DNA of 56,162 nt, from the NCBI GenBank assembly GCA_028691965.1, contig JAQUYE010000008.1, positions 1-56,162 on the forward strand. Reading direction: 5' to 3'. Position 1 is the first letter of the stretch; each line of letters begins with the position of its first letter. Below the pieces are notes generated by a model that was given only the letters and a program-made list of their open reading frames with translations, had not been told where the DNA came from and ran no database searches. A program made the translations under genes and the position numbers. Source of the DNA: Paludibacter sp. GTDB taxonomy: Bacteria > Bacteroidota > Bacteroidia > Bacteroidales > Paludibacteraceae. This document shows positions 23,194 through 43,908 of this stretch, piece by piece.

Positions 23194-23523
23194 TTGTTGT
23201 TTATTCAGGATTTGTTGCTACTTTTGGAGCTTGCCCGCACTCAGGTTGTCAAGGCAGTTAACTCCACCATGGTGGAAACATATTTTGAAATCGGAAGATT
23301 GATAATTGAAGAAGAGCAAAACGGCAATACCCGTGCAGAATATGGAAAACAAATACTGAAAGAACTCTCTGTCAGATTAACGGATGAATTTGGTTTAGGT
23401 TTTTCTGTTACTAATTTACAGCAAATGAAGAATTTCTATAGTATTTACAGGAAACAGCAGACAGTGTCTGTTAAATATACACTTCCGGTAATAAACACAA
23501 TGGATGCACTCTTTAAGGTGTAG
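23194..23523 (+). pseudogene. truncated DUF1016 N-terminal (PDDEXK-family) remnant
   Basis: About 109 codons from a TTG match the N-terminal half of DUF1016 proteins. The stretch VKAVNSTMVETYFEIGRLI is followed by YGKQILKELSVRLTDEFG and FSVTNLQQMKNFYSIY. Intact members are about 330-370 aa with a PD-(D/E)xK nuclease half at the C-terminus; that half is missing here. After QTVSV the sequence diverges and stops. There is no good ATG, so the N-terminus is probably also lost. It lies alone between the small membrane protein and the NfeD gene. Confidence 0.7.
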
Positions 23524-29035: not shown

Positions 29036-32000
29036 ATGGATGCCTTTAAAACTCACGAACAAGTAATTGCTAACTATCGGAATTATCTGACTTCTTTTAT
29101 AAATATTGTTGACGAGCGAATAAAGGAAGAAGTGGCTAATGCGTTTAATTCAAATGGTTTCATCCCCGACCCTTTGATACAATTCAATCCTTCATTCGAA
29201 AAAGGTGTGTCGCTGCAAACCCTGAGTGACGAAGGTCTGGTGCATCCCGATTTGGTTAAAACCCTCGGTAGTTATACACTGTACCGGCATCAGGTGGAAG
29301 CATTGCGTTTGGGTATTACTGAAAAAAAAGGTTTTATTGTAACTTCTGGAACAGGTTCCGGAAAATCCCTTACTTTTTTGGCTACAATTTTTAATTCGAT
29401 CTTTCAACAGGGCTCATGCAAGCCGACTGGTGTGAAAGCAATTCTGGTATATCCGATGAATGCGCTGATTAACTCTCAGGAAGAGGAAATTAAAAAATAC
29501 CAGACAAATTTCGGTGAGGGTTTTCCAGTGTCGTATGCAAAGTATACAGGGCAGGAAAGTGCTGACGAACGAGCCAGAATTCGCAAGGATGTTCCGGATA
29601 TCATACTTACCAATTACATGATGCTGGAACTCATCATGACCAGGCAATCGGAATCATGGATGAGAGATTCAATTAAAAACAATCTTCAATTTCTGGTGTT
29701 CGACGAACTGCATACCTACAGGGGTCGCCAGGGAGCTGATGTAAGTTTGTTGATTCGCAGACTGAAGAGTTGGTGCGCCAATGAAGTTCTTTGTATAGGG
29801 ACCTCGGCAACCATGGCCAGTGCAGGTACTCCCAGTGAAAAAAAGCAAAAAGTAGCCGATGTGGCATCTACCATTTTTGGAGCTTCGTATAATGCAACGC
29901 AAATAGTTGGTGAATACCTGGAGACCTGCACAGATGGAAAGGTTTTTTCGCCCATTGAATTACGCCGGGCCATAGATGCAGGAATTGATTTTCAGGGCGA
30001 TGAAGAAAGTTTTGTCCGACATGCGTTGACAAATTGGCTGGAATTAACTGTAGCGTTAAAACTTAATAAAGGATTTTACGAACGGGGAGTGCCGTTGACT
30101 TTGCCTGCTATCGCTGAAAAGCTTCGTTCGGAAACCGAACAGGAAAGCAGTAAAGTAATTGCTGTGTTGAATGATTTGTTGCGCTGGACTGAAAAGCTTA
30201 ACGAGAAGAATCGATTGCTTGAAACCCGAAAGTCGTATCTGCCCTTCCGTTTTCATCAGTTTATTTCACAAACCAGCACTGTTTCAGTTACGCTCGAACC
30301 CCGTTCCTACAGAGCGATTTCAATTCAACCGGGAAGGTATGTGAAAAGCGATCAGGAAGAAAAATTGCTGTTCCCGGTTTTGTTTAGTCGTTATTCGGGT
30401 GTCGATTTCATATGTGTTCACAAGGATGTAGCAACCAAAACCTTACAACCACGCAATCCTTCTGATCCCATTATTACCCTGCGCTTACAGGATGCAAAAG
30501 GAGAGAACCTGAAAGAAGAAAATTTTGCCGATGGATACCTGGTACTTGACGAAGGAGAAGAGTTCTGGACGGATAATCCAATTGAAATCGCTCCACGTGA
30601 ATGGCTTACCAAAGACGAAACCCGTTTCAGGCCCGAATACGAATGGTTGATGCCCAAGCCTGTGTTTTTTAACTCCAAAGGAGAGTATAGTCACGAAGAA
30701 ATTTTCCCGTTAAAAGGTTATTATATCCCGGCTAAATTGCGGATTGACCCCACTGCAGGTGTAATTTTCGATGATTCGAAAACGAATGAGGGTACCAAAT
30801 TGATGAGTCTGGGAAATGAAGGACGCAGTACGGCAACCACCATTTTGTCGTATTCTATCGTTAATTCGTTACATCTGCAACACGAAAAAGTCGAAAATCA
30901 AAAGCTATTGAGTTTTACCGACAACCGTCAGGATGCATCGTTGCAAGCGGGTCATTTCAACGATTTTCTTTCATCTATCCGACTAAGAGCAGCATTACGG
31001 GTTGCTTTGGTCGACAATTCCGGAGGTTTGGATGTAAATACAATAGCCGAACGTGTTTTTGATGAATTAAAATTAGACGAATCAGCCTATGCCTTGGATC
31101 CATCCTCCAATCCACGTTTTCCGGATGAAGATAATCAGAAAGCACTGAAACTGTATTTACTGTATCGTATTTTTCAGGATCTGAAAAGAGGTTGGCGGTA
31201 TACCTTGCCCAATTTAGAGCAAACGGCATTGATGCGCATACAGTACAAAAATTTGCATAAGCTGTGTGGCTATGATGATGAATTTCAGAATATTCCCTAT
31301 TTCAATTCGATTAATGCAGAACGCAGGGAGGAAATTCTCACGCAATTGCTACATTTCTTCAGGACTAATTTTGCCATTTATCACCGCATCCTGCTCGACG
31401 ATAAAGCAGAAACCGAGAATGTGTTGAAGAATAAGCTCGACGAGAAAAAACTCTGGTCGCTCGATCCGAATGAATCGTTGGAAGCACCTACCTATATGGT
31501 TGCTACTATCCCCGGAAGAAGTACACAAAAGAGAATATTTTTTGCATCCATGGGGCCCCGTTCCGGCTTTGGGAAGTTCCTCAAACGCAGGATGGTTGAA
31601 GATGGATTCACTCCTTTTAAACAGGATGAATACCGTGAGGTGATTGAGCAATTGTGCACCAAACTGGCAAGTGACGCTAAAATACTTCATAAACGAACTG
31701 ATTTACATGGAAGTACCGGTGTGGTGGATGGTTATTTGTTGAAAACGGATTTTATCAGTTGGTTGCCGGGTGATGGAGAAACGGTTGAAATTGACAAGAC
31801 TCGTCTGAATGCCTATAAGAATTTACAGTTGCAACCTAACCGCTTCTTTCAACAACTTTTCAAAACTGATTTTTCTCAGTTTGGTAAAGAAATCGTTGGA
31901 CGTGAACATACCGGTCAGTTATCCACCGCCGATCGGATACAACGAGAAGGAGATTTCAGGGCCGGAGCAATTTCTTCCTTGTTTTGTTCACCTACCATGG

Positions 32001-34201
32001 AATTGGGTATCGATATCTCGGACCTGAATATAGTGCACATGCGAAATGTACCACCCAACCCGGCCAATTACGCACAACGAAGCGGACGGGCAGGACGAAG
32101 CGGACAGACCGCCGTGGTTTTTACTTATTGCGCGGCCATGTCGCCCCACGATCAGAATTATTTCAAAGCAGCTCCTACCATGGTGGCTGGCTCGGTAGTT
32201 GTCCCCCGCATCGACCTGAAAAATGAAGAGCTGCTGACTTCTCACTTTAATGCCTATATATTGATGGAGCTGGCGGTGAAAGAGTTAAATTCATCCGTTG
32301 CTGATATGCTCGATCTCACTGTCGAATCCAACATCCGGGTGAGGGAAGATATAATTAATTCAATGGAACATAGTTTATCGCTCTATAAAAAGCAATGGAT
32401 TGCTAACTTTAAGCTGGTTACTTCGGGTATCCTTCCTGAATTACATTCTACCTGGTGGTTTACCGACGATTGGTTCGATAAGAAAATCAATTCGTTTGTT
32501 GCCCGTTTTCAAAAAGCATTCGATCGCTGGATACAGCTTTATTTATCAGCTTTAAAAATGATGAATCAGGCACATATCATCCTGAAAGATCCGACCTTAA
32601 AATCCGATAATCCGCTGAAAATAGAAGCTAAAAGCCAGTATGCAGTTTCGCAAAAACAACTGGCTTTACTCAAAAATGACAACAGAACCAGCTACGGCAA
32701 CGATTCTGAATTCTACATCTTCAGGTACCTGGCTGCCGAAGGTTTCCTGCCGGGATACAATTTTACCCGATTGCCGGTACGCGCTTTCGTGGGATATCGT
32801 TACAACGATCAGGGTGAATTTATTTCCCGACCACGTTCGGTTGCATTGAAAGAATTTGGACCGCAAAACATCGTTTATCACAATGGTAGTAAATACCGCA
32901 TCAACCGGATGATGGTGCTCGAAACAGAATCGATGCAGCGAAAAATCACCTTATCGCACGAGACCGGATATGCATTCCTGGATGCCGATGCTGAACTGGC
33001 CAATGTGGATCCGATTACCCGGGCAGAACTCCGAAATGGCATCAATTCGGAACATAAAACGATGCTGATGGAAATGGCCGAGAGCGAAGGAGTCCCTCAG
33101 GAGCGTATTTCGTGTGTGGAAGAAGAGCGAACATCGTCGGGTTACCGGATTGAGGAGTATTTCCGTTATCCGCAGGGGATTGAACGCACCGAAAGTCTTA
33201 TCATCAAAAAAGGAGATCAAAACCTGCTGAACCTGATTTTTGGTCAGGCTACCGAACTCATTAAAATAAACCGCAAGCTCAATAAAACCGAGCACGACGG
33301 TTTTGCTATCGACAAACGTAATGGTAAGTGGTTGGCTCAAAAAGACCTCGAACGACAGGAGGTGGCTGAGAATAAAAAGGATGTGATGGTATTTGTGCGC
33401 GATACTGCCGACACGCTGTATATTCAACCTATGCAGGCACTTGGGTTGAGCCGGGAGCAAACTGTTTCGCTCAGCTATGCAATGAAACGGGGCGCTGAAA
33501 AGCTCTTTCAGGTAGAAGAAAACGAAATTGGCGTACGGGTAATGGGCAAGGAAGATAAACCCAATATCCTGTTGTACGAAGCCGCTGAAGGAAGTTTGGG
33601 AATACTCTCTCAATTGGTTCAGGAGCCGTTGAAATTAAAAGAATTGTTTGTTGAAAGTTACCGAAGCATGCACTTCGACCCTGAAACAAAAGAAGAAACT
33701 GAGTTGGGACGTACACTGCCTAAAGCCACCTATCAGGATTTGTTGTCGTACTATAATCAACGTGATCACGAAGTGCTCGACCGCCATTCCATCAAACAAG
33801 CGCTTGAATTTCTGATGGATTGTGAGTTTTCAACCGTACAAAATGGCAATGATCGTGAAAAGCAATACCAATACTTGCTGGAAAACTACGACAAAAATAG
33901 TTCTACCGAAAAAAAACTGATCGATTATTTGTACAGGAATAACCTGGCTTTACCCGATAAGGCACAGGTAAATATGCCTGATTTTTATATCAGTGCCGAT
34001 TTTGTTTACACAACCGATGATGGTTCAGTAATCGTATTTTGTGATGGCTCGGTGCACGACCTTCCGGAGGTGAAAGCCGATGATGAATACAAACGCAACT
34101 TATTGATAGATGCTGGTTATGATGTGATTGTATGGCATTATGAAGAGAAACCAGAGGAGCTGGTAACCAGAAGAAAAGATGTTTTCAGAAAACTAAATTA
34201 A
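29036..34201 (+). CDS. giant DEAD-box helicase with DUF1998-like region and nuclease-like C-terminus (DISARM DrmA/B- or DruE-like)
   Basis: This is 1,721 aa from ATG 29036; the TTG at 29000 would add 12. The superfamily 2 motor has YRHQVEAL and Walker A TSGTGSGKS (about 103-111), box II FDELHTYRGRQGADVSLL (about 220), GTSATMAS (about 255), and after a long insert motif V-VI CSPTMELGIDISDLN and ANYAQRSGRAGRSGQ (about 985-1020). DUF1998-like sequence follows (about 1460-1570, with YEAAEGSLGILSQL), but its usual zinc cysteines are missing. The last 80 residues (MPDFYISADFVYTTDDG, VIVFCDGSVHD) resemble a Vsr/DUF559 PD-(D/E)xK fold with the usual glutamate replaced by Phe. The SNF2 gene follows by 3 bp. 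Confidence 0.85.
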   Translation: MDAFKTHEQVIANYRNYLTSFINIVDERIKEEVANAFNSNGFIPDPLIQFNPSFEKGVSLQTLSDEGLVHPDLVKTLGSYTLYRHQVEALRLGITEKKGFIVTSGTGSGKSLTFLATIFNSIFQQGSCKPTGVKAILVYPMNALINSQEEEIKKYQTNFGEGFPVSYAKYTGQESADERARIRKDVPDIILTNYMMLELIMTRQSESWMRDSIKNNLQFLVFDELHTYRGRQGADVSLLIRRLKSWCANEVLCIGTSATMASAGTPSEKKQKVADVASTIFGASYNATQIVGEYLETCTDGKVFSPIELRRAIDAGIDFQGDEESFVRHALTNWLELTVALKLNKGFYERGVPLTLPAIAEKLRSETEQESSKVIAVLNDLLRWTEKLNEKNRLLETRKSYLPFRFHQFISQTSTVSVTLEPRSYRAISIQPGRYVKSDQEEKLLFPVLFSRYSGVDFICVHKDVATKTLQPRNPSDPIITLRLQDAKGENLKEENFADGYLVLDEGEEFWTDNPIEIAPREWLTKDETRFRPEYEWLMPKPVFFNSKGEYSHEEIFPLKGYYIPAKLRIDPTAGVIFDDSKTNEGTKLMSLGNEGRSTATTILSYSIVNSLHLQHEKVENQKLLSFTDNRQDASLQAGHFNDFLSSIRLRAALRVALVDNSGGLDVNTIAERVFDELKLDESAYALDPSSNPRFPDEDNQKALKLYLLYRIFQDLKRGWRYTLPNLEQTALMRIQYKNLHKLCGYDDEFQNIPYFNSINAERREEILTQLLHFFRTNFAIYHRILLDDKAETENVLKNKLDEKKLWSLDPNESLEAPTYMVATIPGRSTQKRIFFASMGPRSGFGKFLKRRMVEDGFTPFKQDEYREVIEQLCTKLASDAKILHKRTDLHGSTGVVDGYLLKTDFISWLPGDGETVEIDKTRLNAYKNLQLQPNRFFQQLFKTDFSQFGKEIVGREHTGQLSTADRIQREGDFRAGAISSLFCSPTMELGIDISDLNIVHMRNVPPNPANYAQRSGRAGRSGQTAVVFTYCAAMSPHDQNYFKAAPTMVAGSVVVPRIDLKNEELLTSHFNAYILMELAVKELNSSVADMLDLTVESNIRVREDIINSMEHSLSLYKKQWIANFKLVTSGILPELHSTWWFTDDWFDKKINSFVARFQKAFDRWIQLYLSALKMMNQAHIILKDPTLKSDNPLKIEAKSQYAVSQKQLALLKNDNRTSYGNDSEFYIFRYLAAEGFLPGYNFTRLPVRAFVGYRYNDQGEFISRPRSVALKEFGPQNIVYHNGSKYRINRMMVLETESMQRKITLSHETGYAFLDADAELANVDPITRAELRNGINSEHKTMLMEMAESEGVPQERISCVEEERTSSGYRIEEYFRYPQGIERTESLIIKKGDQNLLNLIFGQATELIKINRKLNKTEHDGFAIDKRNGKWLAQKDLERQEVAENKKDVMVFVRDTADTLYIQPMQALGLSREQTVSLSYAMKRGAEKLFQVEENEIGVRVMGKEDKPNILLYEAAEGSLGILSQLVQEPLKLKELFVESYRSMHFDPETKEETELGRTLPKATYQDLLSYYNQRDHEVLDRHSIKQALEFLMDCEFSTVQNGNDREKQYQYLLENYDKNSSTEKKLIDYLYRNNLALPDKAQVNMPDFYISADFVYTTDDGSVIVFCDGSVHDLPEVKADDEYKRNLLIDAGYDVIVWHYEEKPEELVTRRKDVFRKLN

Positions 34202-34204
34202 ACG

Positions 34205-37015
34205 ATGATACAATCCAAAACCCGCCAACCCGGCAATCTGATTCACTACCGTCACCGCGATTGGATGGTGCTGCCTTCCGATGATGCTGAAATTCTCAAA
34301 ATTAAACCCCTGGGTGGTTCCGATGAGGAAATCACAGCCATTTATCTACCCCTTGCTGTTGACCAGGAGAAAATCTCGGATGCTACCTTTCCTGCCCCGC
34401 TTGCTTCGGAAATTGGTGCTTTTGAGACTGCCCGTTTATTATTCGATGCGTCCCGACTGTCGTTTCGTAACTCGGCCGGACCGTTTCGCTGCATGGGGAA
34501 ATTGTCGTTCCGGCCACGGTCGTATCAGTTGGTGCCATTGGTAATGGCACTGAAGCAGGATGTGGTACGACTGATGATTGCCGATGATGTGGGAATTGGT
34601 AAAACCATCGAAGCACTGCTTATTTTAAAAGAAATGATGGAGCGGGGAGAAGTAAAACGGTTTGCGGTGATTTGTCCACCTCACCTCTGCGAACAATGGC
34701 AACAGGAATTGAAGGATAAATTAGCCATCGAAGCGGAAATTATCCGTTCAAGTACTGCTGCACGGCTCGACCGGATGATTCCCGACGATAGCAGTGTGTT
34801 TCAATACCTGCCCTATCAGGTGATTTCCATCGACTACATCAAGGCCGACAAACGCCGGGGGATTTTTCTGCAGGATTGTCCGGAAATGGTCATTGTGGAT
34901 GAAGCTCACACCTGTGCACTGCCCGAAGGTGCCAAATCGAAATCGCAACAACAGCGCTATGCCTTGCTGCACGATTTATCGCGCGATGAGCAGGTGGCAC
35001 GGCATTTTGTGTTGCTCACAGCTACTCCGCATAGCGGGAAAGACGGAGAGTTCACTTCCTTACTCGGATTACTTAAACCTGAATTTGGCACGCTGAATTT
35101 TGAACAGCTGGAAGAAAGTGCCCGTAAAAAGATTGCCCGTCATTTCGTGCAACGCAAACGCAGCAATATAAAACGATGGCTCAACGAACAAACTGAATTT
35201 CCGGATCGCGATTCAAAGGAAATTGGTTATACGCTTTCGCCTGAATATCAGTCTTTTTACCAAAATCTGCTGCGCTTTGCACGTGGCATTTCTGAAATCG
35301 AAAGCTCCACCCGTCAGGCTCAGTTGCTCCGTTCGTGGGCTGCTATCGCCTTGCTGAAAGGAGCCATGTCGAGCCCGGCTATGGCCATCGATATGCTCGA
35401 ACGACGAAAAGATAAACTGCGCACAGAGGACTGGGACGACCTGCCCATCCCCAGTATCGAAGAGACTTTGTTTGAGGAACTGGATTCAGCCACCGATATT
35501 CCCCGACAGGACTTGATTGAATCGGTGGAATACGTTCAGCGGGAAATGGATGAACTTACAGCCTTGCAGCTTGCAGCTAACACATTGCTCGAAAAGGCTG
35601 TCGATCGGAAACTGGAACGAACCGTTAAATTGATTTCCGAATGGTTGAAAGCAGGTTTCGATCCTATTATTTTCTGTCATTATATTTCCACCGCCGATTA
35701 TGTGGCTTCAAAACTTAAACAGCTTCTTCCCAAAAATGTGCATGTCGAAGCCATTACTTCGGAGTTGGCCGATGAGCAGCGCCGCGAGCGAATTGAAATC
35801 ATGGGCAAAGCGGCTAAACGGGTTCTCGTTGCAACCGACTGTCTGAGCGAGGGAATCAACCTTCAGGAGCATTTTACGGCCGTACTTCATTACGATTTGC
35901 CCTGGAATCCCAACCGCATCGAACAACGGGAGGGTAGGGTCGATCGCTTCGGACAAACCGCCAACGAGGTGAAAACCTATGTGCTGTACGGTGAGGATAA
36001 TGCCATGGATACCTTTATCCTCGATGTGCTGATTAAAAAAGTGCGTGAAATTCAGAAGTCCATCGGTGTTACCATCAATATTGGTGAAAACAGCAAATCC
36101 ATCATGGCCGAAGCTGCTCAACGCATTTTGTACGATGAAAGTCAGAAAATTAAACAGTTGCAATTATTCGAAACGTTTTCCAACGATCTGGAACAGGCAC
36201 GCCGAAAAGGCGAAAACCTGAGGAGTATTTTTGCCCACGAATCCATCGATCCGGAAGCAATAAAAAAAGACCTGGAAGAAGTGAACGAAGCCATTGGCGA
36301 TATGCACACCGTAGCCGGTTTTGTGAGCACGGCGGTTTCCCGATTGGGAGGAAGTTGTAAGCCGGATGGAATAGGTCACCTGTTGCAACCGCAAAACCTG
36401 CCTCCTCATATCCGCCGTTTTTTCGGCACACAGCAAACGGTAAAAATCAGTTTCGACTCGCCTACTCCTAAAGGATATCAGTACATCGGTCGTAATCACC
36501 CCTTTGTGGAACAACTCTGTCAGTTTCTGATTGCCATTGCTTTCGAGGAACATCCGGAATATGGCCGCATTGCCCGCGTGTGTGAAGTGCAGACTGATGC
36601 CGTGGAAACCAAAACAACCCTGGTGATGTTCAGGGTACGCAATGTGATTAAAGAAGTGGCATCCACCCGTGAATCGGTCGCCGAGGAAATGTACCTTTGG
36701 GGATACCGTAGCAAAGAGGGTAGTATTGAAACGCTTACGTATGCCGAAGCGAAAGAATTGCTCAATCATGCCCGGGTGTTGACCAACCTGTCACGCGAAC
36801 GACAGGAATCGGACATTGCTCTCGAACTGACCCGCTTCGATCAGATTAAACCGCAGTTTATGCAACTGGCCGTGGAAAGGGCCGAAAACCTGGTTGCTGC
36901 ACATAGTCGTTTTAAAGCACTGATTGGTGGACGACGGTACGAAAAAGCCGAACCAGTGCTTCCTCCCGATGTGATGGGAGTGTATTTGTTACTACCAAAA
37001 CCTAAAATGATATAA
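34205..37015 (+). CDS. SNF2-family helicase (DISARM DrmD-like)
   Basis: This 936-aa protein has an N-terminal PGNLIHYRHRDWMVLPSDD module, typical of DrmD/DpdE-type and HepA-like proteins. The SNF2 motor follows: motif I ADDVGIGKTIEALL (about 125), II VIVDEAHTCALPEG (about 230), III LLTATPHSG (about 270). The C-terminal lobe has LVATDCLSEGINLQ and PWNPNRIEQREGRVDRFGQ (about 540-583). These are complete, so it should be an active ATPase. DrmD is one of two genes that define class 1 DISARM beside drmMI, and a methylase gene lies two genes downstream. It starts 3 bp after the large helicase stop, so they are an operon. Confidence 0.85.
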   Translation: MIQSKTRQPGNLIHYRHRDWMVLPSDDAEILKIKPLGGSDEEITAIYLPLAVDQEKISDATFPAPLASEIGAFETARLLFDASRLSFRNSAGPFRCMGKLSFRPRSYQLVPLVMALKQDVVRLMIADDVGIGKTIEALLILKEMMERGEVKRFAVICPPHLCEQWQQELKDKLAIEAEIIRSSTAARLDRMIPDDSSVFQYLPYQVISIDYIKADKRRGIFLQDCPEMVIVDEAHTCALPEGAKSKSQQQRYALLHDLSRDEQVARHFVLLTATPHSGKDGEFTSLLGLLKPEFGTLNFEQLEESARKKIARHFVQRKRSNIKRWLNEQTEFPDRDSKEIGYTLSPEYQSFYQNLLRFARGISEIESSTRQAQLLRSWAAIALLKGAMSSPAMAIDMLERRKDKLRTEDWDDLPIPSIEETLFEELDSATDIPRQDLIESVEYVQREMDELTALQLAANTLLEKAVDRKLERTVKLISEWLKAGFDPIIFCHYISTADYVASKLKQLLPKNVHVEAITSELADEQRRERIEIMGKAAKRVLVATDCLSEGINLQEHFTAVLHYDLPWNPNRIEQREGRVDRFGQTANEVKTYVLYGEDNAMDTFILDVLIKKVREIQKSIGVTINIGENSKSIMAEAAQRILYDESQKIKQLQLFETFSNDLEQARRKGENLRSIFAHESIDPEAIKKDLEEVNEAIGDMHTVAGFVSTAVSRLGGSCKPDGIGHLLQPQNLPPHIRRFFGTQQTVKISFDSPTPKGYQYIGRNHPFVEQLCQFLIAIAFEEHPEYGRIARVCEVQTDAVETKTTLVMFRVRNVIKEVASTRESVAEEMYLWGYRSKEGSIETLTYAEAKELLNHARVLTNLSRERQESDIALELTRFDQIKPQFMQLAVERAENLVAAHSRFKALIGGRRYEKAEPVLPPDVMGVYLLLPKPKMI

Positions 37016-37040
37016 CCTTTAACTATAAAATTTTTTCTTT

Positions 37041-37850
37041 ATGTCGAAAAAGCAATTTATTCACGTTGATAAGGCAGATATTTCTGTGGTTCCTGTAGGG
37101 AATTCTGACTACATTTCGCTTACCGATATGGCTCACAGTCAGATGGAAGAGCATGTCATTATAAAATGGCTCAGTTTGAAAAGTACCATCGAGTACATTG
37201 GAGAATGGGAAGCTCTTTTTAATCCTGATTTTAATTATACCGAATTCGGTACAATTAAAAATAGTGCAGGGAGTAATAATTTTGTTCTTTCGGTTAAACA
37301 ATGGATTGAAAAAACAAAGGCTGTAGGCGTTGTTGCTAAAGCAGGAAGATATGGTGGAACCTATGCTCATAAAGACATTGCATTTCACTTTGGGATGTGG
37401 ATTAGTCCCCGCTTTCAACTTTTAATGGTGAAAGAATACCAACGTTTAAAAGAAGAAGAACAAAAACAACTCGGTTGGTCGGCCAAACGCGAACTGGCTA
37501 AAATTAACTACCATATTCACACTGATGCAATTAAGCAAAACCTTATTCCGGAAGAGCTCACCAAAGACCAAATCAACTTTGTGTATGCCAACGAAGCGGA
37601 TGTGCTGAATGTCGCACTGTTTGGGGTGACGGCTAAACAATGGCGTGATGCCAATCCGGATTTAAAAGGTAATATCCGCGATTATGCAACGATTAACGAG
37701 TTGATTTGCTTGTCGAACCTCGAAAACCTGAATGCGTTTTGGATTAATGAGGGTTTGCCTCAGCAGGAGCGACTGATAAGGTTGAATCAGGTGGCCATAC
37801 ATCAAATGAAGATACTGCAACAGGTTGAAAAACGTAATTTGCTAAAATAG
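37041..37850 (+). CDS. KilA-N domain DNA-binding protein
   Basis: This 269-aa protein has a KilA-N-like N-terminal half (about 25-130): ISLTDMAHSQMEEHVIIKWL, YIGEWEALFNPDFN, AKAGRYGGTYAHKDIAFHFG and MWISPRFQLLMVKEYQRL. A helical C-terminal half (about 140-269, LTKDQINFVYANEADVLNVAL) follows. KilA-N domains bind DNA and are common in phages and mobile elements; this longer form is frequent near restriction-type genes. It lies 25 bp after the SNF2 gene and 6 bp before the methylase gene, within the same operon. A role in recognising or regulating target DNA is inference. Confidence 0.85.
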   Translation: MSKKQFIHVDKADISVVPVGNSDYISLTDMAHSQMEEHVIIKWLSLKSTIEYIGEWEALFNPDFNYTEFGTIKNSAGSNNFVLSVKQWIEKTKAVGVVAKAGRYGGTYAHKDIAFHFGMWISPRFQLLMVKEYQRLKEEEQKQLGWSAKRELAKINYHIHTDAIKQNLIPEELTKDQINFVYANEADVLNVALFGVTAKQWRDANPDLKGNIRDYATINELICLSNLENLNAFWINEGLPQQERLIRLNQVAIHQMKILQQVEKRNLLK

Positions 37851-37856
37851 AAGGTA

Positions 37857-40800
37857 ATGAACTACACCGCCATTCATATTCAGGGAAATATCCTCTCCAG
37901 CGAAATCCTGGAAAAAATTCGTACTGAAGATATTCGGTATCAAAAAGCAACGGATTTTGGGCTGCACCCCAACGCTCCGGTGCGCGACGAAATTAACTTA
38001 GCCTGGAGCATTGCCGTTACGAGTTGGAATGCCTTCGGCATGAAGCGGGAGCAGCTCAGCGATACCGATTCGGGTACCAGCGAAACGCGCCGCTACTGGA
38101 TGCTGCCGTTGTTGCAGCAAATCCTGGGATACGAAATCGCTATTTCCACAGCCGAAATTATCAACGGAAAATCCTATGCCATCAGTCACCGCGCTTCCAA
38201 CCGCGATGGATTTCCGGTGCATATCGTGGGGGTGAATCAGTCGCTCGATAAGCGTCCCGAAACAGGTGGAACCCGCTTATCGCCTCATGCGCTGGTGCAG
38301 GAATATGTGAACAGCACCGAACATTTGTACGCCCTCGTGAGCAATGGCCGACACCTACGCTTGTTGCGCGATGCCACCCGCCTCAGTCGGTTGAGTTACC
38401 TGGAGTTCGATCTCGAACAAATCATGGAGCAGGGCCTTTACACCGAATTTGCCCTGCTGTATCGCGCACTGCATGCCTCCCGGATGCCGGTTCAAAAAGA
38501 ATCGGGTGCCGAAAGTGTGATGGAGTACTACCACCAGGAAGCGCTGTCTTCGGGTTCGCGCATCCGTGAGCGGTTGAGCGGGGCGGTCGAAAATTCGATA
38601 CGGGAGCTGGCCAATGGCTTGTTGCACTATCCGGCCAACGAGGAATTACGCCGTCTGGTGCTCGATGGGCGCATTCTTCCCACTGATTATTACCTCTACA
38701 CCCTGCGGTTGGTATATCGCATTCTTTTCTTATTGGTGATTGAAGAACGCAAACTGATTTACGGCGAAAAGCTGGATGAAGGGCTGCTGAAAAAACGAAA
38801 TATCTACTACGATTTTTACAGCGTTCGGCGGCTTACCCTGCTGGCAGAAAAATTAGTGTATGTCGATTCGCGCAAGTGCGACCTGTGGCAATCGCTTATC
38901 ACCACGTTCAGTCTGTTCGAAAATCAGGAATTGGGCAGCAAATTAGGGATTTCACCCCTGGGTTCGGGTTTGTTTGCCCCCGATGCACTCGGCGAACTGA
39001 AATACCAGCAGTTGAGTAACGAGAGTTTGCTGAAGGTGCTGCGGTACCTGGTGACGTTCGAGAATGAAAACCTTCAGCGGGTTCGGGTGAATTATGCCGA
39101 TTTGGATGTGGAAGAATTTGGCTCGGTGTACGAAGGGTTACTCGAATACGATCCCGAAATTACGGACAATGCCGGTCAGCCGGTATTTGGATTTGTGGCG
39201 GGAACAGGTCGCTCTTCGAGTGGTTCGCATTATACTCCCGAAGAATTGGTAAAGCCACTCATTACCCATTCCTTAGATTATTTGATAGAAGAAAGGCTAC
39301 AAAAACCAGAGCAATTCCTGGATGTTGCTAAGCGTTCAACGCTTTCGCGCCCCCAGCAAACCGAAGCGGCATTGCTATCGCTTACCATATGCGATGTTGC
39401 CTGTGGTAGCGGACATATTTTGCTTTCTGCCGCCCGTAGGGTGGGGTTCGAATTAGCGAAAGTACGCAGCGGCGAAGACCAGCCCACTCCCACAGCCATG
39501 CGCATGGCAGTGCGCGATGTCATCAGTCATTGCATTTACGGAGTCGATCTCAATCCCTTAGCGGTGGAGCTGTGCAAAGTAGCCCTGTGGCTCGAAGCCC
39601 ACGAACCAGGACAGCCGCTCAACTTCCTCGATCACCGCATTAAGTGCGGAAATGCCATTGTGGGATTGGCGCACCGCGAAGAGTTGGAGAAAGGAATTGC
39701 CACTGAGGCCTTCAAAACGCTGCCGGGCGATGAAAAGGAGTTGGCCAAACTTTTCAGGGATCAGAATATCAAAGACCGGAAACTATACGAAGCCAATACG
39801 CTCGATTACAAACTCGATTTTGAAGCCACTACCAACCATTCGGTGCACGAAGCCCTGGCCGAATACCGCTCGTTTGTGAGCCAACCCGAAACCACGCCCG
39901 ACGAAATAGCACGCAAAGCCAGTGCTTACAACCGTTTCATCAATGGCCGTGGTTATGGTTTCCTGAAAGCCATGGCCGACACGCAGGTAGCCCAGTTTTT
40001 TATCGCCAAAACCACGGCCAACAAGGATTATTTGATTACCGATGCCGAATACCGGCAAATTCTCACCGGTCACCAGGGCTGGCAGGATCGGCGCATGGCG
40101 ATGGCCAATGCCGTTGCGCAGGAAAAACGGGTTTTTCATTGGTTTTTGGAGTTTCCGGAGGTGTTTGCGGGGGGGAAAGCAACCGGGAATGAAAATCTCA
40201 AGTTGAGCCAATCAGCCGAAGAACCAGGTGCTGAACGAAGTCAAAGCGGTGGATTTGATTGTATTTTAGGGAATCCACCGTTTTTGGGAGGTCAGAAACT
40301 TTCGGGCAGTTATGGCGATAACTTCCTCGAATGCATTAAGTACGAGTTTGCTCCCATCGGTGCTGTCGATTTGGTAACCTATTTCTTTCGCCGGATTTTT
40401 ACCCTGATTAAGCCCGGCGGATTCCAATCGTTGATTTCTACCAATACCATTGCTCAGGGAAAAGCAAGGGAAGATGGGCTGGATGTGATTATGCAGCACG
40501 GAGGTTCGATTAATCATGCCGTGCGCAGCATGCGATGGCCGGGAATTGCCGCGGTAGAAGTGGCGCTGGTAACCATCACCAAACAAAACTGGCAACTGAA
40601 GCGGGTGCTCGATGGTAAGGAAGTGAAAACGATAACTCCTTACCTCGATGATGCTGTAACCATTGGAAATCCTCATCCTCTGAAACAAAACGAAGGAAAA
40701 AGTTTTCAGGGAAGTATTGTGTTGGGCAAAGGATTTATTCTTACACCCGAAGAAGCTCAGGCGCTGATTGAGAAGGATCCCCGAAATAAAGAAGTGTTGT

Positions 40801-41981
40801 TCCCATATCTGAATGGCGATGATTTGAATAATAATCCGGACCAAAGGCCGAGCAGGTGGGTGATTAATTTCTTTGATTGGACGGAGGAGAAGGCGAGGGA
40901 ATATCCGGATTGCTATAAAATAATTGAAGAAAAAGTAAAGCCTGAAAGGCAACGCTGGGCATTGGATAAAAATGGAAATGAAATTGTTGGTGAATATGCG
41001 TTAAGAAAACCATTGCCGGAAAAGTGGTGGATTTATGGAGAAAAGAGGCCGGGGTTGTATCGTGCAATATCAAAAATGGATAATGTTTTAGTAGTAGCAA
41101 AAACCGCCAAGTATATTGGAACTTTTCTGTATAATTCAAAAATAGTATTGGATCAGTCTCTTACTATCGGTGTATATAAAGATTTCAAGAGTATTGCAAT
41201 TATTCAATGTAGTCTTTGTGATGTGTACTCAAAGACGTTTGGAACTACTATGGAAACAAGATTCAGATTTAATATTGAGAATCTCGAAACCTTCCCTTTT
41301 CCTCAAAACCTTACCACCTCACAGGTACAAAAGCTCGAAGAAATAGGCGAAACCTACCACGAACACCGACGTCAACTCATGTTACGCATGCAGTTAGGCT
41401 TAACCAAAACCTACAATGCTTTTCATGCGAAGGAGATTCAAGAATCAAGAATCAAGAGTCAAGACTTGAAGGAACTGGATAAGAAGACCATCGAAAAGCA
41501 ATACGGTAAAGAAGTCTGGAACCTTTGGAACCACCTGCAGAAACACAGCCATTCCGACCAGGTCGAAACTTCAGAAGAAGCTTCAGTCTGCACCCTCGAG
41601 GAAGCCATTTCCGGCATTGTAGAACTCCGTCGGTTGCATGTGCTGATGGACGAAGCCGTGCTCGAAGCTTATAGCTGGAACGTCGATCGTCCACAGCAAC
41701 CCGCCATCAGGCTCAGGCACGATTTCTACGAAGTGGATTACCTGCCCGAGAACGACCGCATCCGCTTCACGATTCATCCCGATGCACGCAAGGCAGTGCT
41801 CAAGCGCCTGTTGGAGCTCAACCGCAAAATCCACGACGAAGAAGTAGCGGCCGGATTGTGGGACAAAAAAACTACTTCCAAAAAAGCTGCGAAAGCCTAC
41901 CCGAAAGTTGGTAAAACAACTTTAAAAGCCAGCGAGCCGGAAGCAGGGTATGGAGGTTTGTTTGATGGGGTGGAGGAGTGA
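37857..41981 (+). CDS. large adenine-N6 DNA methyltransferase (Eco57I/DrmMI-like)
   Basis: This 1,374-aa protein has SAM motif I DVACGSGHILLSAARR (about 512) and the N6-adenine catalytic motif IV ILGNPPFLGG (about 805), inside an Eco57I-type MTase domain. A target-recognition-like region is near 930-1180 (PYLNGDDLNNNPDQRPSRWV; PFPQNLTTSQVQKLEEIGET). The N-terminal half (1-480) resembles the degraded nuclease/helical part of type IIG and DISARM-type methylases; no D-ExK catalytic set is visible, so it probably only methylates. It is the fourth gene of the island operon, 6 bp after the KilA-N gene. It would mark host DNA in a DISARM-like system. Confidence 0.87.
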   Translation: MNYTAIHIQGNILSSEILEKIRTEDIRYQKATDFGLHPNAPVRDEINLAWSIAVTSWNAFGMKREQLSDTDSGTSETRRYWMLPLLQQILGYEIAISTAEIINGKSYAISHRASNRDGFPVHIVGVNQSLDKRPETGGTRLSPHALVQEYVNSTEHLYALVSNGRHLRLLRDATRLSRLSYLEFDLEQIMEQGLYTEFALLYRALHASRMPVQKESGAESVMEYYHQEALSSGSRIRERLSGAVENSIRELANGLLHYPANEELRRLVLDGRILPTDYYLYTLRLVYRILFLLVIEERKLIYGEKLDEGLLKKRNIYYDFYSVRRLTLLAEKLVYVDSRKCDLWQSLITTFSLFENQELGSKLGISPLGSGLFAPDALGELKYQQLSNESLLKVLRYLVTFENENLQRVRVNYADLDVEEFGSVYEGLLEYDPEITDNAGQPVFGFVAGTGRSSSGSHYTPEELVKPLITHSLDYLIEERLQKPEQFLDVAKRSTLSRPQQTEAALLSLTICDVACGSGHILLSAARRVGFELAKVRSGEDQPTPTAMRMAVRDVISHCIYGVDLNPLAVELCKVALWLEAHEPGQPLNFLDHRIKCGNAIVGLAHREELEKGIATEAFKTLPGDEKELAKLFRDQNIKDRKLYEANTLDYKLDFEATTNHSVHEALAEYRSFVSQPETTPDEIARKASAYNRFINGRGYGFLKAMADTQVAQFFIAKTTANKDYLITDAEYRQILTGHQGWQDRRMAMANAVAQEKRVFHWFLEFPEVFAGGKATGNENLKLSQSAEEPGAERSQSGGFDCILGNPPFLGGQKLSGSYGDNFLECIKYEFAPIGAVDLVTYFFRRIFTLIKPGGFQSLISTNTIAQGKAREDGLDVIMQHGGSINHAVRSMRWPGIAAVEVALVTITKQNWQLKRVLDGKEVKTITPYLDDAVTIGNPHPLKQNEGKSFQGSIVLGKGFILTPEEAQALIEKDPRNKEVLFPYLNGDDLNNNPDQRPSRWVINFFDWTEEKAREYPDCYKIIEEKVKPERQRWALDKNGNEIVGEYALRKPLPEKWWIYGEKRPGLYRAISKMDNVLVVAKTAKYIGTFLYNSKIVLDQSLTIGVYKDFKSIAIIQCSLCDVYSKTFGTTMETRFRFNIENLETFPFPQNLTTSQVQKLEEIGETYHEHRRQLMLRMQLGLTKTYNAFHAKEIQESRIKSQDLKELDKKTIEKQYGKEVWNLWNHLQKHSHSDQVETSEEASVCTLEEAISGIVELRRLHVLMDEAVLEAYSWNVDRPQQPAIRLRHDFYEVDYLPENDRIRFTIHPDARKAVLKRLLELNRKIHDEEVAAGLWDKKTTSKKAAKAYPKVGKTTLKASEPEAGYGGLFDGVEE

Positions 41982-41982
41982 A

Positions 41983-42120
41983 AAAAAGAAAGACACCAAC
42001 CAAGGTTTGATGTCTTTCAGCTATCGTAGGGAGGTTGGTCTTTTCTGAGGAACTCTACAGTTCTCATATCCAGAAGGACGCTCTCCCTTTATAAGATAAT
42101 GTTATTGATGCATTGAATAA
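41983..42120 (-). ncRNA. candidate structured small RNA on the minus strand
   Basis: Minus-strand reading: TATCTTTG (42126-42133), then about 135 bases that can fold into a rod. The rod is closed by GGGAG/CTCCC (42028-42034 with 42087-42092), with inner helices GAACT/AGTTC (42052-42066 region). A separate hairpin 42019-41989 has a GAAAGACA/TGTCTTTC stem and is followed by seven T. In the terminator hairpin the one non-Watson-Crick pair is G-U as RNA on this strand but C-A on the other, supporting this direction. The TTG element is not clear. The same DNA on the plus strand also folds, so an untranslated-leader structure is an alternative. Confidence 0.4.
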
Positions 42121-42143
42121 TGGTGCAAAGATAGATAATTTTG
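42113..42143 (+). promoter_or_regulatory. promoter of the PLD-like gene, overlapping a minus-strand -7 box
   Basis: TTG at 42113-42115, 20 bases, then TAATTTTG at 42136-42143 matches the Bacteroidota promoter. Transcription would start near 42150, leaving about 17 bases before ATG 42167. The minus-strand TATCTTTG at 42126-42133 lies inside the same interval, so the PLD-like gene and the candidate RNA could be alternatives at one site. Confidence 0.5.
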
Positions 42144-42166
42144 TTAGAAATTTAGATATTAAAACT

Positions 42167-43483
42167 ATGAACTACATCCATTCCTTCACCGAATCCGACT
42201 TGTGTAACGTAATCCTTCAGACACAAAAGTCGCTGTATATCTGTATGCCTCTTCTTCAACCGGAAGTAATAAATGCTATTGATCAACTTCAGTACGAATC
42301 TTCAATCGAAGTTTCAATCAATATAGGCATCGATTTTTCACCGGAAACCTTTCGACAAGGCTATGGCGAAATTGAAAACTATGAAGAACTGAACAGAGCT
42401 GGATATACTATCAAGAACTTCAAAGACAATCGTATATCATTTGTAATCTCCGATGATACCGGCTATTTCTTGTTTTTTGAGTCGAGGTATTTTATTCCGG
42501 CAAACAAACCGACTTATAATGCGGTCAGTATCGACCCAATTTCAATCATCAGGTTGAAACAGCATTTTTTTGATGCGTACAAAAGTGAAGCGGAATACAA
42601 AAATGAAATTGCAAATTCGTTTGTAGATGAAACGGTTAGGCTGAATACTATACGAGAAGAGTATGCAAACAAATCCTCCATCGAAAAGTCGGAATTAAGT
42701 GATTCAGCGTTGAAGCAGGTGACGGAAGACCTTAAAAAGAATCCTCCATTGAAGCCGGATTATCAGCGGATAGTCAGGTTTTATACGCATAAGTTTCAGT
42801 ATATCAAGTTAGAATACAAAGGGGCCAACCTTCAATCAAAAAAAATAGATATTCCCTCCAGGATATTGCCAATTAAAAATGCTACTTTCAAAAAGAATCT
42901 GGAAACAAAATTAAATCTTTTTACGAACAGAGATTCTGAATTTTTTAACGACCTGGAAGAAATGAATAACAGGGTAAAGGCTCTGAGAGAAAAATACCTG
43001 ACACCTTTGACATCCAGGAAAGTGAGTATCCTTAAAAGCTTTCAGAAAAGTGAATTTAAAGAGGCAGTTGAAGAGCTTAAAAAGGATATCGAAGCTCTGT
43101 CGAATAAAAATCTTCTACAAGTTGCTCAAGCAATATCAGAAACCAAGGTGGAGATAAGCAAACAGTTAAAAGAGTTTTTTATTCAATACAAGGAAGAGTT
43201 TCCTTCTTACAATACCTTGTTTAGAGATGCTGAAGAGAGTTATGTAATGAACGAAATCGATAATTATGTTGACCAGGTGATAGCACAAATTAAGTGGCCT
43301 GCTGCACATCAATTGTTTGAGAAATTTAATCTGGAAGCCATACCCAGTGGTATTACCTATGAGGATTTAACGAATGAATCGTTAATCAGAGAGTTGAAAG
43401 AAAGAGGCTTGTTTGATGATGAGGATGATGATAACTTAGCTGTTTTTAGCGAAGGAATAGAACTTATTCCGTTAGACAAATAA
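42167..43483 (+). CDS. PLD-fold-like protein without the HKD motif (possible DrmC counterpart)
   Basis: This is 438 aa from ATG 42167. The N-terminal 130 residues (SLYICMPLLQPEVINAIDQL, INIGIDFSPETFRQGYGEIE, ISFVISDDTGYFLFFESRYF) follow the strand/helix order of phospholipase D-like nuclease repeats. The HxKxxxxD motif is absent anywhere in the protein. The rest is long charged helices (about 160-370), likely coiled coil. In DISARM, the fifth gene drmC encodes a PLD protein, which makes the position suggestive. Here catalysis is unlikely, so it may be structural. I could not identify the family with certainty. It follows the candidate RNA/promoter and precedes a small orphan gene by 11 bp. 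Confidence 0.65.
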   Translation: MNYIHSFTESDLCNVILQTQKSLYICMPLLQPEVINAIDQLQYESSIEVSINIGIDFSPETFRQGYGEIENYEELNRAGYTIKNFKDNRISFVISDDTGYFLFFESRYFIPANKPTYNAVSIDPISIIRLKQHFFDAYKSEAEYKNEIANSFVDETVRLNTIREEYANKSSIEKSELSDSALKQVTEDLKKNPPLKPDYQRIVRFYTHKFQYIKLEYKGANLQSKKIDIPSRILPIKNATFKKNLETKLNLFTNRDSEFFNDLEEMNNRVKALREKYLTPLTSRKVSILKSFQKSEFKEAVEELKKDIEALSNKNLLQVAQAISETKVEISKQLKEFFIQYKEEFPSYNTLFRDAEESYVMNEIDNYVDQVIAQIKWPAAHQLFEKFNLEAIPSGITYEDLTNESLIRELKERGLFDDEDDDNLAVFSEGIELIPLDK

Positions 43484-43494
43484 TAATACCCGCC

Positions 43495-43908
43495 ATGAAC
43501 ATCAATTACCCCGGGATTATTCATCGCCTAAACCATACTCAGGTTTGGGTGCTTCAACCCATCGAACTGGAAATCAATTCAGCTCAGTTTGTTGCGTTAC
43601 TTAAGGCGTATCAACCACATTGGGACATGCCGTTTGGCATTCTCTACGATTCGCGCGACGATTATTTTTATGTGTACCGGAGTGGATTTGTAGTGGGCAA
43701 GTACCGGTTTGTAGAAAAAGAAGATAACCGCTATCGCTGTTTGGAGATGTATGGAAACCGAAACAACAACGATTGTCTGGTAATTTTCGAAGTGCTGCAG
43801 GAAGCTTGTCGGCATCATCAGGTGCCGGTCAATCGTACCGGGTTGGAAGCGATGATATTGAAAACCAGAGAGCTAGTCGAAGCTGATTCCCGAAATGAGA
43901 TGTATTAA
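43495..43908 (+). CDS. hypothetical protein at the end of the island
   Basis: This 137-aa protein has no motif that I recognise. It starts MNINYPGIIHRLNHTQVWVL, has an aromatic, strand-rich middle (GILYDSRDDYFYVYRSGFVV) and a helical C-terminus (RTGLEAMILKTRELVEADS). It follows the PLD-like gene by 11 bp, so it is probably cotranscribed and part of the same system. It is not membrane bound and has no signal peptide. Confidence 0.7.
   Translation: MNINYPGIIHRLNHTQVWVLQPIELEINSAQFVALLKAYQPHWDMPFGILYDSRDDYFYVYRSGFVVGKYRFVEKEDNRYRCLEMYGNRNNNDCLVIFEVLQEACRHHQVPVNRTGLEAMILKTRELVEADSRNEMY

What the first reader, a model, noticed from the sequence alone, without database searches (positions are those of the whole stretch)
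29036..43908. DISARM-like island with an unusual gene set
Six closely spaced plus-strand genes combine a DrmA/DruE-like helicase with a DUF1998-like part, a DrmD-like SNF2 helicase, a KilA-N protein, a DrmMI-like adenine methylase, a PLD-like protein lacking HKD and a small orphan. Family knowledge: class 1 DISARM is drmD-drmMI plus drmA, drmB (DUF1998) and drmC (PLD). Here drmA and drmB could be fused, drmC lacks its catalytic motif, and KilA-N and the 137-aa protein are extra. It could be a variant defence system that has not been described. The function is inferred from gene content only.
Basis: partly seen in the sequence, partly recalled or inferred. Interest (0 to 1): 0.8.

Follow-up and report, generated by a model that had tools for sequence, protein, structure and literature searches.

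The report
Zinc-less ARMADA defence locus with add-ons
This looks like a bacterial anti-virus gene cluster of a recently described kind (ARMADA Type I), in a branch whose main helicase has lost its zinc-binding sites, and it carries add-on genes, one from a seemingly undescribed family that also turns up beside several other kinds of defence system.

Summary
The six plus-strand genes are real. The core is not DISARM and not undescribed: a YprA/DruE-like helicase with its DUF1998-type part fused, a DrmD/DpdE-like SNF2 helicase and a PglX/DrmMI-like methylase, in the order of ARMADA Type I (Bell et al. 2025 preprint). 73 of 102 loci I assembled have this order, and a tree with E. coli ARMADA II and Druantia III references groups the window with Type I. 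Three things go beyond what I read in print. (1) The window lies in a 59-row clade whose YprA proteins have lost CxxC zinc motifs (0-1, against 4-9 elsewhere). (2) The junction between SNF2 and methylase genes is a plug-in slot: 20 of 81 such junctions hold an extra gene (KilA-N here), against 0 of 78 YprA/SNF2 junctions. (3) The 'PLD-like' gene is not a broken drmC but a rare family with a degenerate PLD domain; its nine long members lie in ARMADA, BREX-1, Hma, type I RM and DrmD-type loci. The 137-aa gene has no relative found. Function is inferred; nothing was assayed.

The parts
29036..34201 (+). ArmC-like YprA-family helicase (1721 aa from ATG 29036): RecA1, RecA2 with GRAGR motif, zinc-less MZB/DUF1998-type module, C-terminal PD-(D/E)XK-like domain
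33899..34198 (+). C-terminal nuclease-like domain of the helicase; D, D and H invariant in 36 aligned sequences, window included
   Evidence: alignment A11, model pLDDT 86, weak Foldseek matches to PD-(D/E)XK folds
34205..37015 (+). ArmA-like SNF2/RapA-type helicase (936 aa)
37041..37850 (+). KilA-N protein (269 aa, PADLOC candidate family PDC-S22) in the ArmA/ArmB slot
37857..41981 (+). ArmB-like (DrmMI/PglX/MmeI-like) adenine methylase (1374 aa), SAM motif and NPPF intact
40722..41306 (+). Target-recognition domain of the methylase (Pfam MmeI_TRD match, aa 956-1150)
   Evidence: overlaps the stretch (window aa 778-1135) that differs between the near-identical systems L068 and L097
42167..43483 (+). 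P5-family protein (438 aa): degenerate PLD domain, then long helical region
42200..42562 (+). Degenerate PLD-like domain of P5: in the profile alignment the His, Lys and Asp of HKD face Asp105, Arg107 and Ile112
43495..43908 (+). 137-aa ORF without known relatives, 11 bp after P5

Best explanation
A three-gene anti-phage machine of the ARMADA Type I kind plus plug-in accessories. Inferred: the methylase (ArmB) marks host DNA at a site set by its target-recognition domain; the SNF2 translocase (ArmA) and the YprA helicase (ArmC) act on unmarked or replicating foreign DNA, and ArmC's C-terminal PD-(D/E)XK-like domain cuts it, without host suicide. Shown: gene order, motifs, family kinship, recurrent use of the ArmA/ArmB junction as an insertion slot, and exchange of a methylase stretch that includes the target-recognition region between near-identical systems. 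The KilA-N protein and the P5 pseudo-PLD protein are most likely second-layer modules (backup effector, sensor or adaptor). P5 belongs to a family shared among several methylation- and helicase-based defence systems, so it probably recognises something those systems have in common, such as unmodified DNA held by a translocating SF2 ATPase or phage inhibitors of that complex.
For: Order YprA-SNF2-MTase in 73 of 102 loci; Type I clade with support 100 that excludes E. coli ArmC-II and DruE-III; intact catalytic motifs; conserved nuclease-domain residues. Slot: 20 of 81 SNF2/MTase junctions against 0 of 78 YprA/SNF2 junctions; 15 of the 20 are recognisable: KilA-N 1, Fic 1, Schlafen-AlbA/RecG-C family 7, YhcG 2, PDDEXK_13 2, AbiEii 1, SMC/AAA 1. 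L068 and L097 are 99.87% identical over 9,966 bp up to the slot, yet one holds a 336-aa gene there and the other is empty; their methylases differ mainly over the blocks matching window aa 778-1135 (27-50% identity, against 82-100% in the other blocks except one of 29 compared residues at 62%). P5: nine long members, all in defence loci; seven of them were found without going through ARMADA. Non-abortive action of ARMADA II is reported in PMC12458937.
Against: I saw no functional data for any Type I ARMADA or for P5; the assays in the preprint parts I read are on Type II. The PD-(D/E)XK assignment rests on weak Foldseek matches (none at E 0.001 or better). The P5 fold could not be predicted (pLDDT 43). 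Two of the nine P5 members (window, L094) were met through ARMADA itself, and one locus (G644) shows no methylase motif. P5 is not fixed in any system seen: 3 of 102 ARMADA-type loci.
Confidence: 0.72

Rival explanations
1. A degenerate or rearranged class 1 DISARM: drmA and drmB fused, drmC decayed.
For: The SNF2 and methylase genes match DrmD and DrmMI models.
Against: The helicase scores far better with DruE than DrmA; a PDB search with the helicase profile lists long DEAD/DEAH helicases and YprA, no chain named DrmA or DrmB; 70 of 72 YprA ORFs of 1600 aa or more, window included, keep the DUF1998-type LLSY..NQ motif in the same ORF; P5 is a separate family, not a DrmC.
Confidence: 0.05
2. 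KilA-N and P5 are passenger genes of a defence island, without functional link to the ARMADA core.
For: KilA-N relatives wander: of 25 plasmid records with a match I looked at 8 neighbourhoods, of which 1 lies beside RM genes, and KilA-N occurs in 1 of 81 slots. P5 is downstream of the core and absent from the close relatives L083 and L085.
Against: KilA-N sits 25 and 6 bp from its neighbours, in a slot used by other effector-like genes. The closest KilA-N relative seen (67%, with stops) lies beside a type IIG RM gene. All nine long P5 members are in defence loci.
Confidence: 0.3
3. KilA-N is a transcriptional regulator of the operon rather than an effector.
For: KilA-N is known (recalled) as a DNA-binding domain; PHROG 2657, its best phage family, is labelled transcriptional regulator.
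Against: It lies inside the operon, not at its start; many other occupants of the slot are nuclease- or toxin-like.
Confidence: 0.3

Closest known systems
ARMADA Type I (Bell et al. 2025, PMC12458937)
   Same: [quoted passage not shown] fused DUF1998-type module and C-terminal PD-(D/E)XK-like domain; some cyanobacterial relatives show the reversed order that paper describes (L127, L135, L158).
   Different: The helicase lacks the CxxC zinc modules that the paper describes for the family; KilA-N in the slot and a P5-like gene are not mentioned in the parts of the text I read or searched (supplement not seen).
ARMADA Type II (E. coli ATCC 8739, NC_010468.1)
   Same: Shares all three core proteins, at 24-34% identity over local alignments.
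   Different: Order SNF2-MTase-YprA-UvrD; the window has no UvrD-type fourth gene.
DISARM class 1
   Same: DrmD-like and DrmMI-like genes.
   Different: No separate drmB, no HKD drmC; helicase closer to DruE.
Backup effectors embedded in BREX (PMC12839542) and, recalled only, PrrC in type I RM
   Same: Extra effector-like genes placed inside a methylation-based defence operon; a Schlafen type with histidine-kinase-like and wHTH parts occurs in both.
   Different: Described there for BREX/BR systems; KilA-N and ARMADA have no occurrence in that paper's main text, and I saw no pseudo-PLD module in the passages read.

Membership tests
ARMADA Type I | Three shared genes: YprA-like helicase, BrxHII/RapA-like helicase, PglX-like methylase | tested here: met
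ARMADA Type I | Order YprA, then BrxHII-like, then methylase | tested here: met
   same order in 73 of 102 loci. KilA-N stands between the last two here.
ARMADA Type I | YprA falls in the Type I clade, apart from Type II and Druantia | tested here: met
   74 rows with support 100 exclude ArmC-II and DruE-III; FastTree, one reference each, long reference branches; Type I rows were named so by gene order, the preprint's own Type I sequence was not in the tree
ARMADA Type I | C-terminal predicted active Vsr-type (PD-(D/E)XK) nuclease domain | tested here: inconclusive
   Domain present and its D/D/H residues invariant; model 86 pLDDT; several of the best folds are PD-(D/E)XK enzymes but E is above 0.001, unrelated folds are listed too, and Vsr is not among the 50 of 512 matches shown
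ARMADA Type I | CxxC zinc-binding modules and DUF1998 cysteines (described as general for the helicase family; not the criterion that defines the type) | tested here: not met
   0 CxxC in the window; of 72 YprA ORFs, window included, 59 have 0-1 and 13 have 4-7. Hence filed as a zinc-less variant.
ARMADA Type II | GajB-like helicase with RelE-like domain following the core | tested here: not met
   Downstream genes are P5, a gene without relatives and a DsbA-like gene
DISARM class 1 | Separate drmA and drmB genes, HKD-bearing drmC | tested here: not met
   One fused helicase; P5 lacks HKD; no ORF of the window matched a strict HKD pattern (that pattern also misses some true PLD proteins)
DISARM class 1 | drmMI | tested here: met
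   DrmMI model 5.8e-218
DISARM class 1 | drmD | tested here: inconclusive
   DrmD 4.1e-86 but a DpdE model is better (2.3e-166) in PADLOC; NCBIfam DrmD 321 bits, below its cut-off of 610
Druantia | DruE with DruH or DruABCD partners | tested here: not met
   No match to such partners among the rows shown for the five other genes (lists capped at 25 rows for two of them)
Dpd | 7-deazaguanine insertion genes with DpdE and DpdJ | not tested
   Only ten flanking ORFs were scanned with Pfam; none of those is such a gene

The most novel reading that the evidence does not exclude
P5 is a portable, catalytically dead PLD-fold subunit that has been transferred among at least four architecturally different modification-dependent defence systems (ARMADA I, BREX-1, Hma, type I RM, with remnants beside type I and type III RM). 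There it works as a common second-layer sensor or adaptor that recognises a feature those systems share, so one module upgrades many otherwise unrelated systems.
Probability: 0.35. Interest if true: 0.78.

Novelty: new variant of a known kind. Interest (0 to 1): 0.56.

Why it matters
ARMADA is new, and only Type II is reported as tested in the preprint parts I read. The window belongs to a zinc-less Type I branch found in many phyla, which bears on whether the DUF1998 zinc cluster is needed for the YprA helicase mechanism. The plug-in slot and the natural occupied/empty pair give a direct way to test what embedded accessory genes add. The P5 family, if a shared second layer, would tie together systems so far treated apart and would be a new marker for annotating defence loci.

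Tried and rejected
Degenerate class 1 DISARM: rejected. Fold of P5: AlphaFold with two sequences gave pLDDT 43 and was not used. P5 in viruses: no relative in 50,697 phage records or in two scans of viral contigs. The first genome-contig scan with P5 patterns matched 219 stretches, none a relative. KilA-N as a conserved ARMADA part: rejected. P0006: no relative in 394 other genomes of the phylum or in plasmids. PLD test: 8 of 9 P5 rows used, because the L017 row lacks its N-terminus. Not counted as P5 members: G211 and G127 (weak), and the fragments G439, G095 and G314, which the report tells apart. Dropped: duplicate loci L090, L093, L104 (these three are still in the 102). The Acinetobacter BREX paper PMC9122589 was searched for extra genes; the 12 passages shown name none like P5. 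Flank comparison for an empty island site: 1 of 3 same-genus genomes had the DsbA-like flank, at 45% identity; not pursued.

Full report
OBSERVATION. The six + strand ORFs exist as described. Spacing is operon-like: 3 bp between genes 1 and 2, 25 bp to KilA-N, 6 bp to the methylase, 185 bp to P5 if it starts at ATG 42167 (131 bp to the longer ORF), 11 bp to the last gene. Pfam, NCBIfam and PADLOC scans give: gene 1 DEAD helicase plus MZB, best with DruE models; gene 2 SNF2, best with one DpdE model (2.3e-166) and then DrmD; gene 3 KilA-N and PADLOC candidate PDC-S22 (2.6e-127); gene 4 DrmMI; genes 5 and 6 nothing credible. Motifs of the helicases and the methylase are intact. The ten flanking ORFs scanned are ordinary apart from a DUF1016 fragment: a DsbA-like gene and a beta-lactamase-fold gene downstream; NfeD, Band_7 and radical-SAM genes upstream.

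WHAT THE CORE IS. The literature search found the preprint PMC12458937 (Bell et al. 2025; I read parts 1-4 of 8 and the figure legends, and searched passages). [quoted passage not shown] It reports assays for Type II in E. coli, protective without cell suicide. The window's genes 1, 2 and 4 fit Type I. In 395 genomes of the window's phylum, own genome included, 31 held a match to gene 1 at E 1e-40 or better. Twenty regions around these, one plasmid locus, and 80 loci found with the SNF2 profile in GTDB genomes (508 relatives, best 80 kept) made a set of 102 loci with the window, three of them duplicates. 73 have YprA-SNF2-MTase, 12 have SNF2-MTase without YprA upstream (several cyanobacterial ones with YprA downstream, as the preprint says of Type I), 13 lack a detected methylase (some at contig ends), 4 lack a detected SNF2 gene. 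With E. coli ATCC 8739 ArmC-II and DruE-III as references, 74 rows, the window included, form one clade (support 100, FastTree) outside both. The reference branches are long, there is one reference per type, and no DrmA reference, so this is good but not final.

A ZINC-LESS BRANCH. The preprint describes CxxC zinc modules throughout these helicases and, in the parts I read, reports loss of the DUF1998 cysteines for Dpd. In 72 YprA ORFs of 1600 aa or more (68 different sequences) the number of CxxC motifs is bimodal: 59, the window included, have 0-1 and 13 have 4-7. At the paired Cys columns of the zinc-bearing L075 the window has no Cys; the DUF1998 motif, CYKCLLSY in L075, reads TYQDLLSY in the window. 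The 59 are one side of a branch with support 99-100, and both E. coli references and two plasmid Type I helicases have 5-9 CxxC, so a single loss is the simplest reading. The branch spans many phyla (one search lists Bacteroidota, Chlorobiota, Pseudomonadota, Planctomycetota, Acidobacteriota, Verrucomicrobiota and others). The sample was drawn by likeness to the window, so proportions are not population frequencies. I could not tell which branch the preprint's own Type I representative belongs to.

C-TERMINAL NUCLEASE. An alignment of the last 165 residues of 36 helicases, window included, keeps D, D and H; its model is fairly confident (mean pLDDT 86). Foldseek matches are weak (best E 0.029; none at 0.001; 50 of 512 shown). 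Among those shown are PD-(D/E)XK enzymes (cap-snatching endonucleases, VRR_NUC, TnsA, R2 endonuclease; that these belong to the superfamily is recalled), but also unrelated entries such as DUF59 and adseverin. I take it as a probable nuclease, in line with the preprint's Vsr-type assignment; a direct sequence search of the PDB found nothing.

A PLUG-IN SLOT. Fifteen of the 20 are recognisable: KilA-N (window), SoFic-type Fic (L067), a Schlafen-AlbA/RecG-C family (seven by clustering, three scanned with Pfam, of which L107 shows only the C-terminal domains), YhcG/DUF1016 nuclease (L115, L146), PDDEXK_13 (L094; L130 by clustering), AbiEii (L136), SMC/AAA (L100). Five are unknown (L068, L102, L112, L147, L153; L112 and L147 were not scanned with Pfam). 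The same pair differs in the methylase: identity is 82-100% in 60-column blocks, except one C-terminal block with 29 compared residues at 62%, but 27-50% over the six blocks that correspond to window aa 778-1135. That stretch overlaps the MmeI target-recognition match (956-1150) and begins upstream of it, near the NPPF motif. So accessory gene and probably DNA specificity change while the helicases stay. A parallel idea is in print for BREX: PMC12839542 (abstract, passages and part 1 of section 35 read) catalogues auxiliary and backup nucleases inside BREX operons, including the Schlafen type. PMC11411939, on restriction genes of a V. cholerae island, was seen only in a search listing.

KILA-N. 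Its family wanders. In 20 genomes (own included) 9 had matches, some with many copies and fragments. Of eight plasmid neighbourhoods looked at, out of 25 records matched, one lies beside RM genes, two near other defence-like genes, the rest in prophage, ICE, resistance-island or housekeeping contexts. Of the genomic neighbourhoods fetched I scanned two: the nearest relative (67% identity, with stops) lies beside a type IIG RM gene, another among metabolic genes (L021). It is one occupant of the slot, not an ARMADA component.

THE P5 FAMILY. Gene 5 is rare: 5 of 395 genomes, own included, with the single sequence, 9 of 390, own included, with a profile, four of these weak or fragments, 3 of 388 in the phylum of the Dechloromonas genome G414, one a partial match, 1 of 72,556 plasmids, 0 of 50,697 phages. 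Nine long members were aligned. Contexts: ARMADA I in the window, in G131 (with a TPR gene between methylase and P5) and in L094, where P5 follows the methylase by 6 bp; BREX-1 between pglX and pglZ in Acinetobacter towneri; next after HmaABC-like genes in G255; 14 bp after a type I HsdR in G741, after HsdR and one small ORF in G321, and in a type I RM cluster with AbiEii in G065; and with a DrmD gene and Mokosh- and Zac-like genes in G644, where no methylase motif was seen in the ORFs of the 21-kb contig. Eight of nine thus share a locus with a methylase gene. The window and L094 were met through ARMADA, so seven of seven independently found long members are in defence loci. I ran no formal background estimate; the KilA-N neighbourhoods above are the only comparison. 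Fragments lie beside HsdR (G439), near a type I RM cluster (G095) and after a type III RM pair (G314). The family's N-terminal part matches a profile of 30 PLDc_2 segments from seven genomes (96.1% probability, E 3.1e-9), against at most 4.8% for 17 control profiles, 0.1% for two reversed profiles and 0.9% for 30 column shuffles. In that alignment the HKD His, Lys and Asp face Asp105, Arg107 and Ile112 of the window protein; an acidic position two or three residues further on is common in the family but out of register. The rest is mostly helical in a low-confidence model. Pfam scans of the nine found no convincing family, and my paper searches showed no description of such a module in their listings.

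MECHANISM AND LIMITS. Best reading: methylation marks self, the two helicases act on unmarked foreign DNA, the ArmC C-terminus cuts, and KilA-N and P5 add a second layer. Order, motifs, kinship, slot usage and the methylase exchange are shown; protection, cutting and the roles of the accessories are inferred. The second-layer role of P5 rests on context alone.

Noticed in passing
window 23194-23523 (+): A 109-aa ORF matches only the DUF1016 N-terminal domain: looks like a remnant of a YhcG-type nuclease, a family that elsewhere occupies the ArmA/ArmB slot.
   Followed up: no
L226 (Deinococcus radiodurans R1 plasmid MP1): A Type I ARMADA-like locus in this model organism has its methylase annotated as two ORFs followed by an IS630-type element; the system may be inactive.
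   Followed up: no
L225 (Sphingomonas sp. MM-1 plasmid pISP0): A Type I ARMADA-like locus on a plasmid typed as conjugative lies next to WYL, RecB-like nuclease, exonuclease and AAA ATPase genes, and an HNH gene overlaps the end of the methylase gene.
   Followed up: no
downstream of the methylase in L080, L099, L101, L109, L110, L115, L124, L152: A recurrent accessory gene of about 650-690 aa follows the methylase in these eight loci (cut short in L110; clustering). L080's copy is annotated DUF2326; L099's matches DUF2326 just under the Pfam cut-off. A second recurrent downstream partner of Type I ARMADA.
   Followed up: partly
L068 and L097, methylase genes: Near-identical systems with an exchanged stretch that includes the target-recognition region, a natural specificity-swap candidate.
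   Followed up: yes
L127, L135, L158 (cyanobacteria): SNF2 and methylase genes precede the YprA gene, with one to five other ORFs in between, matching the reversed Type I order in the preprint.
   Followed up: partly
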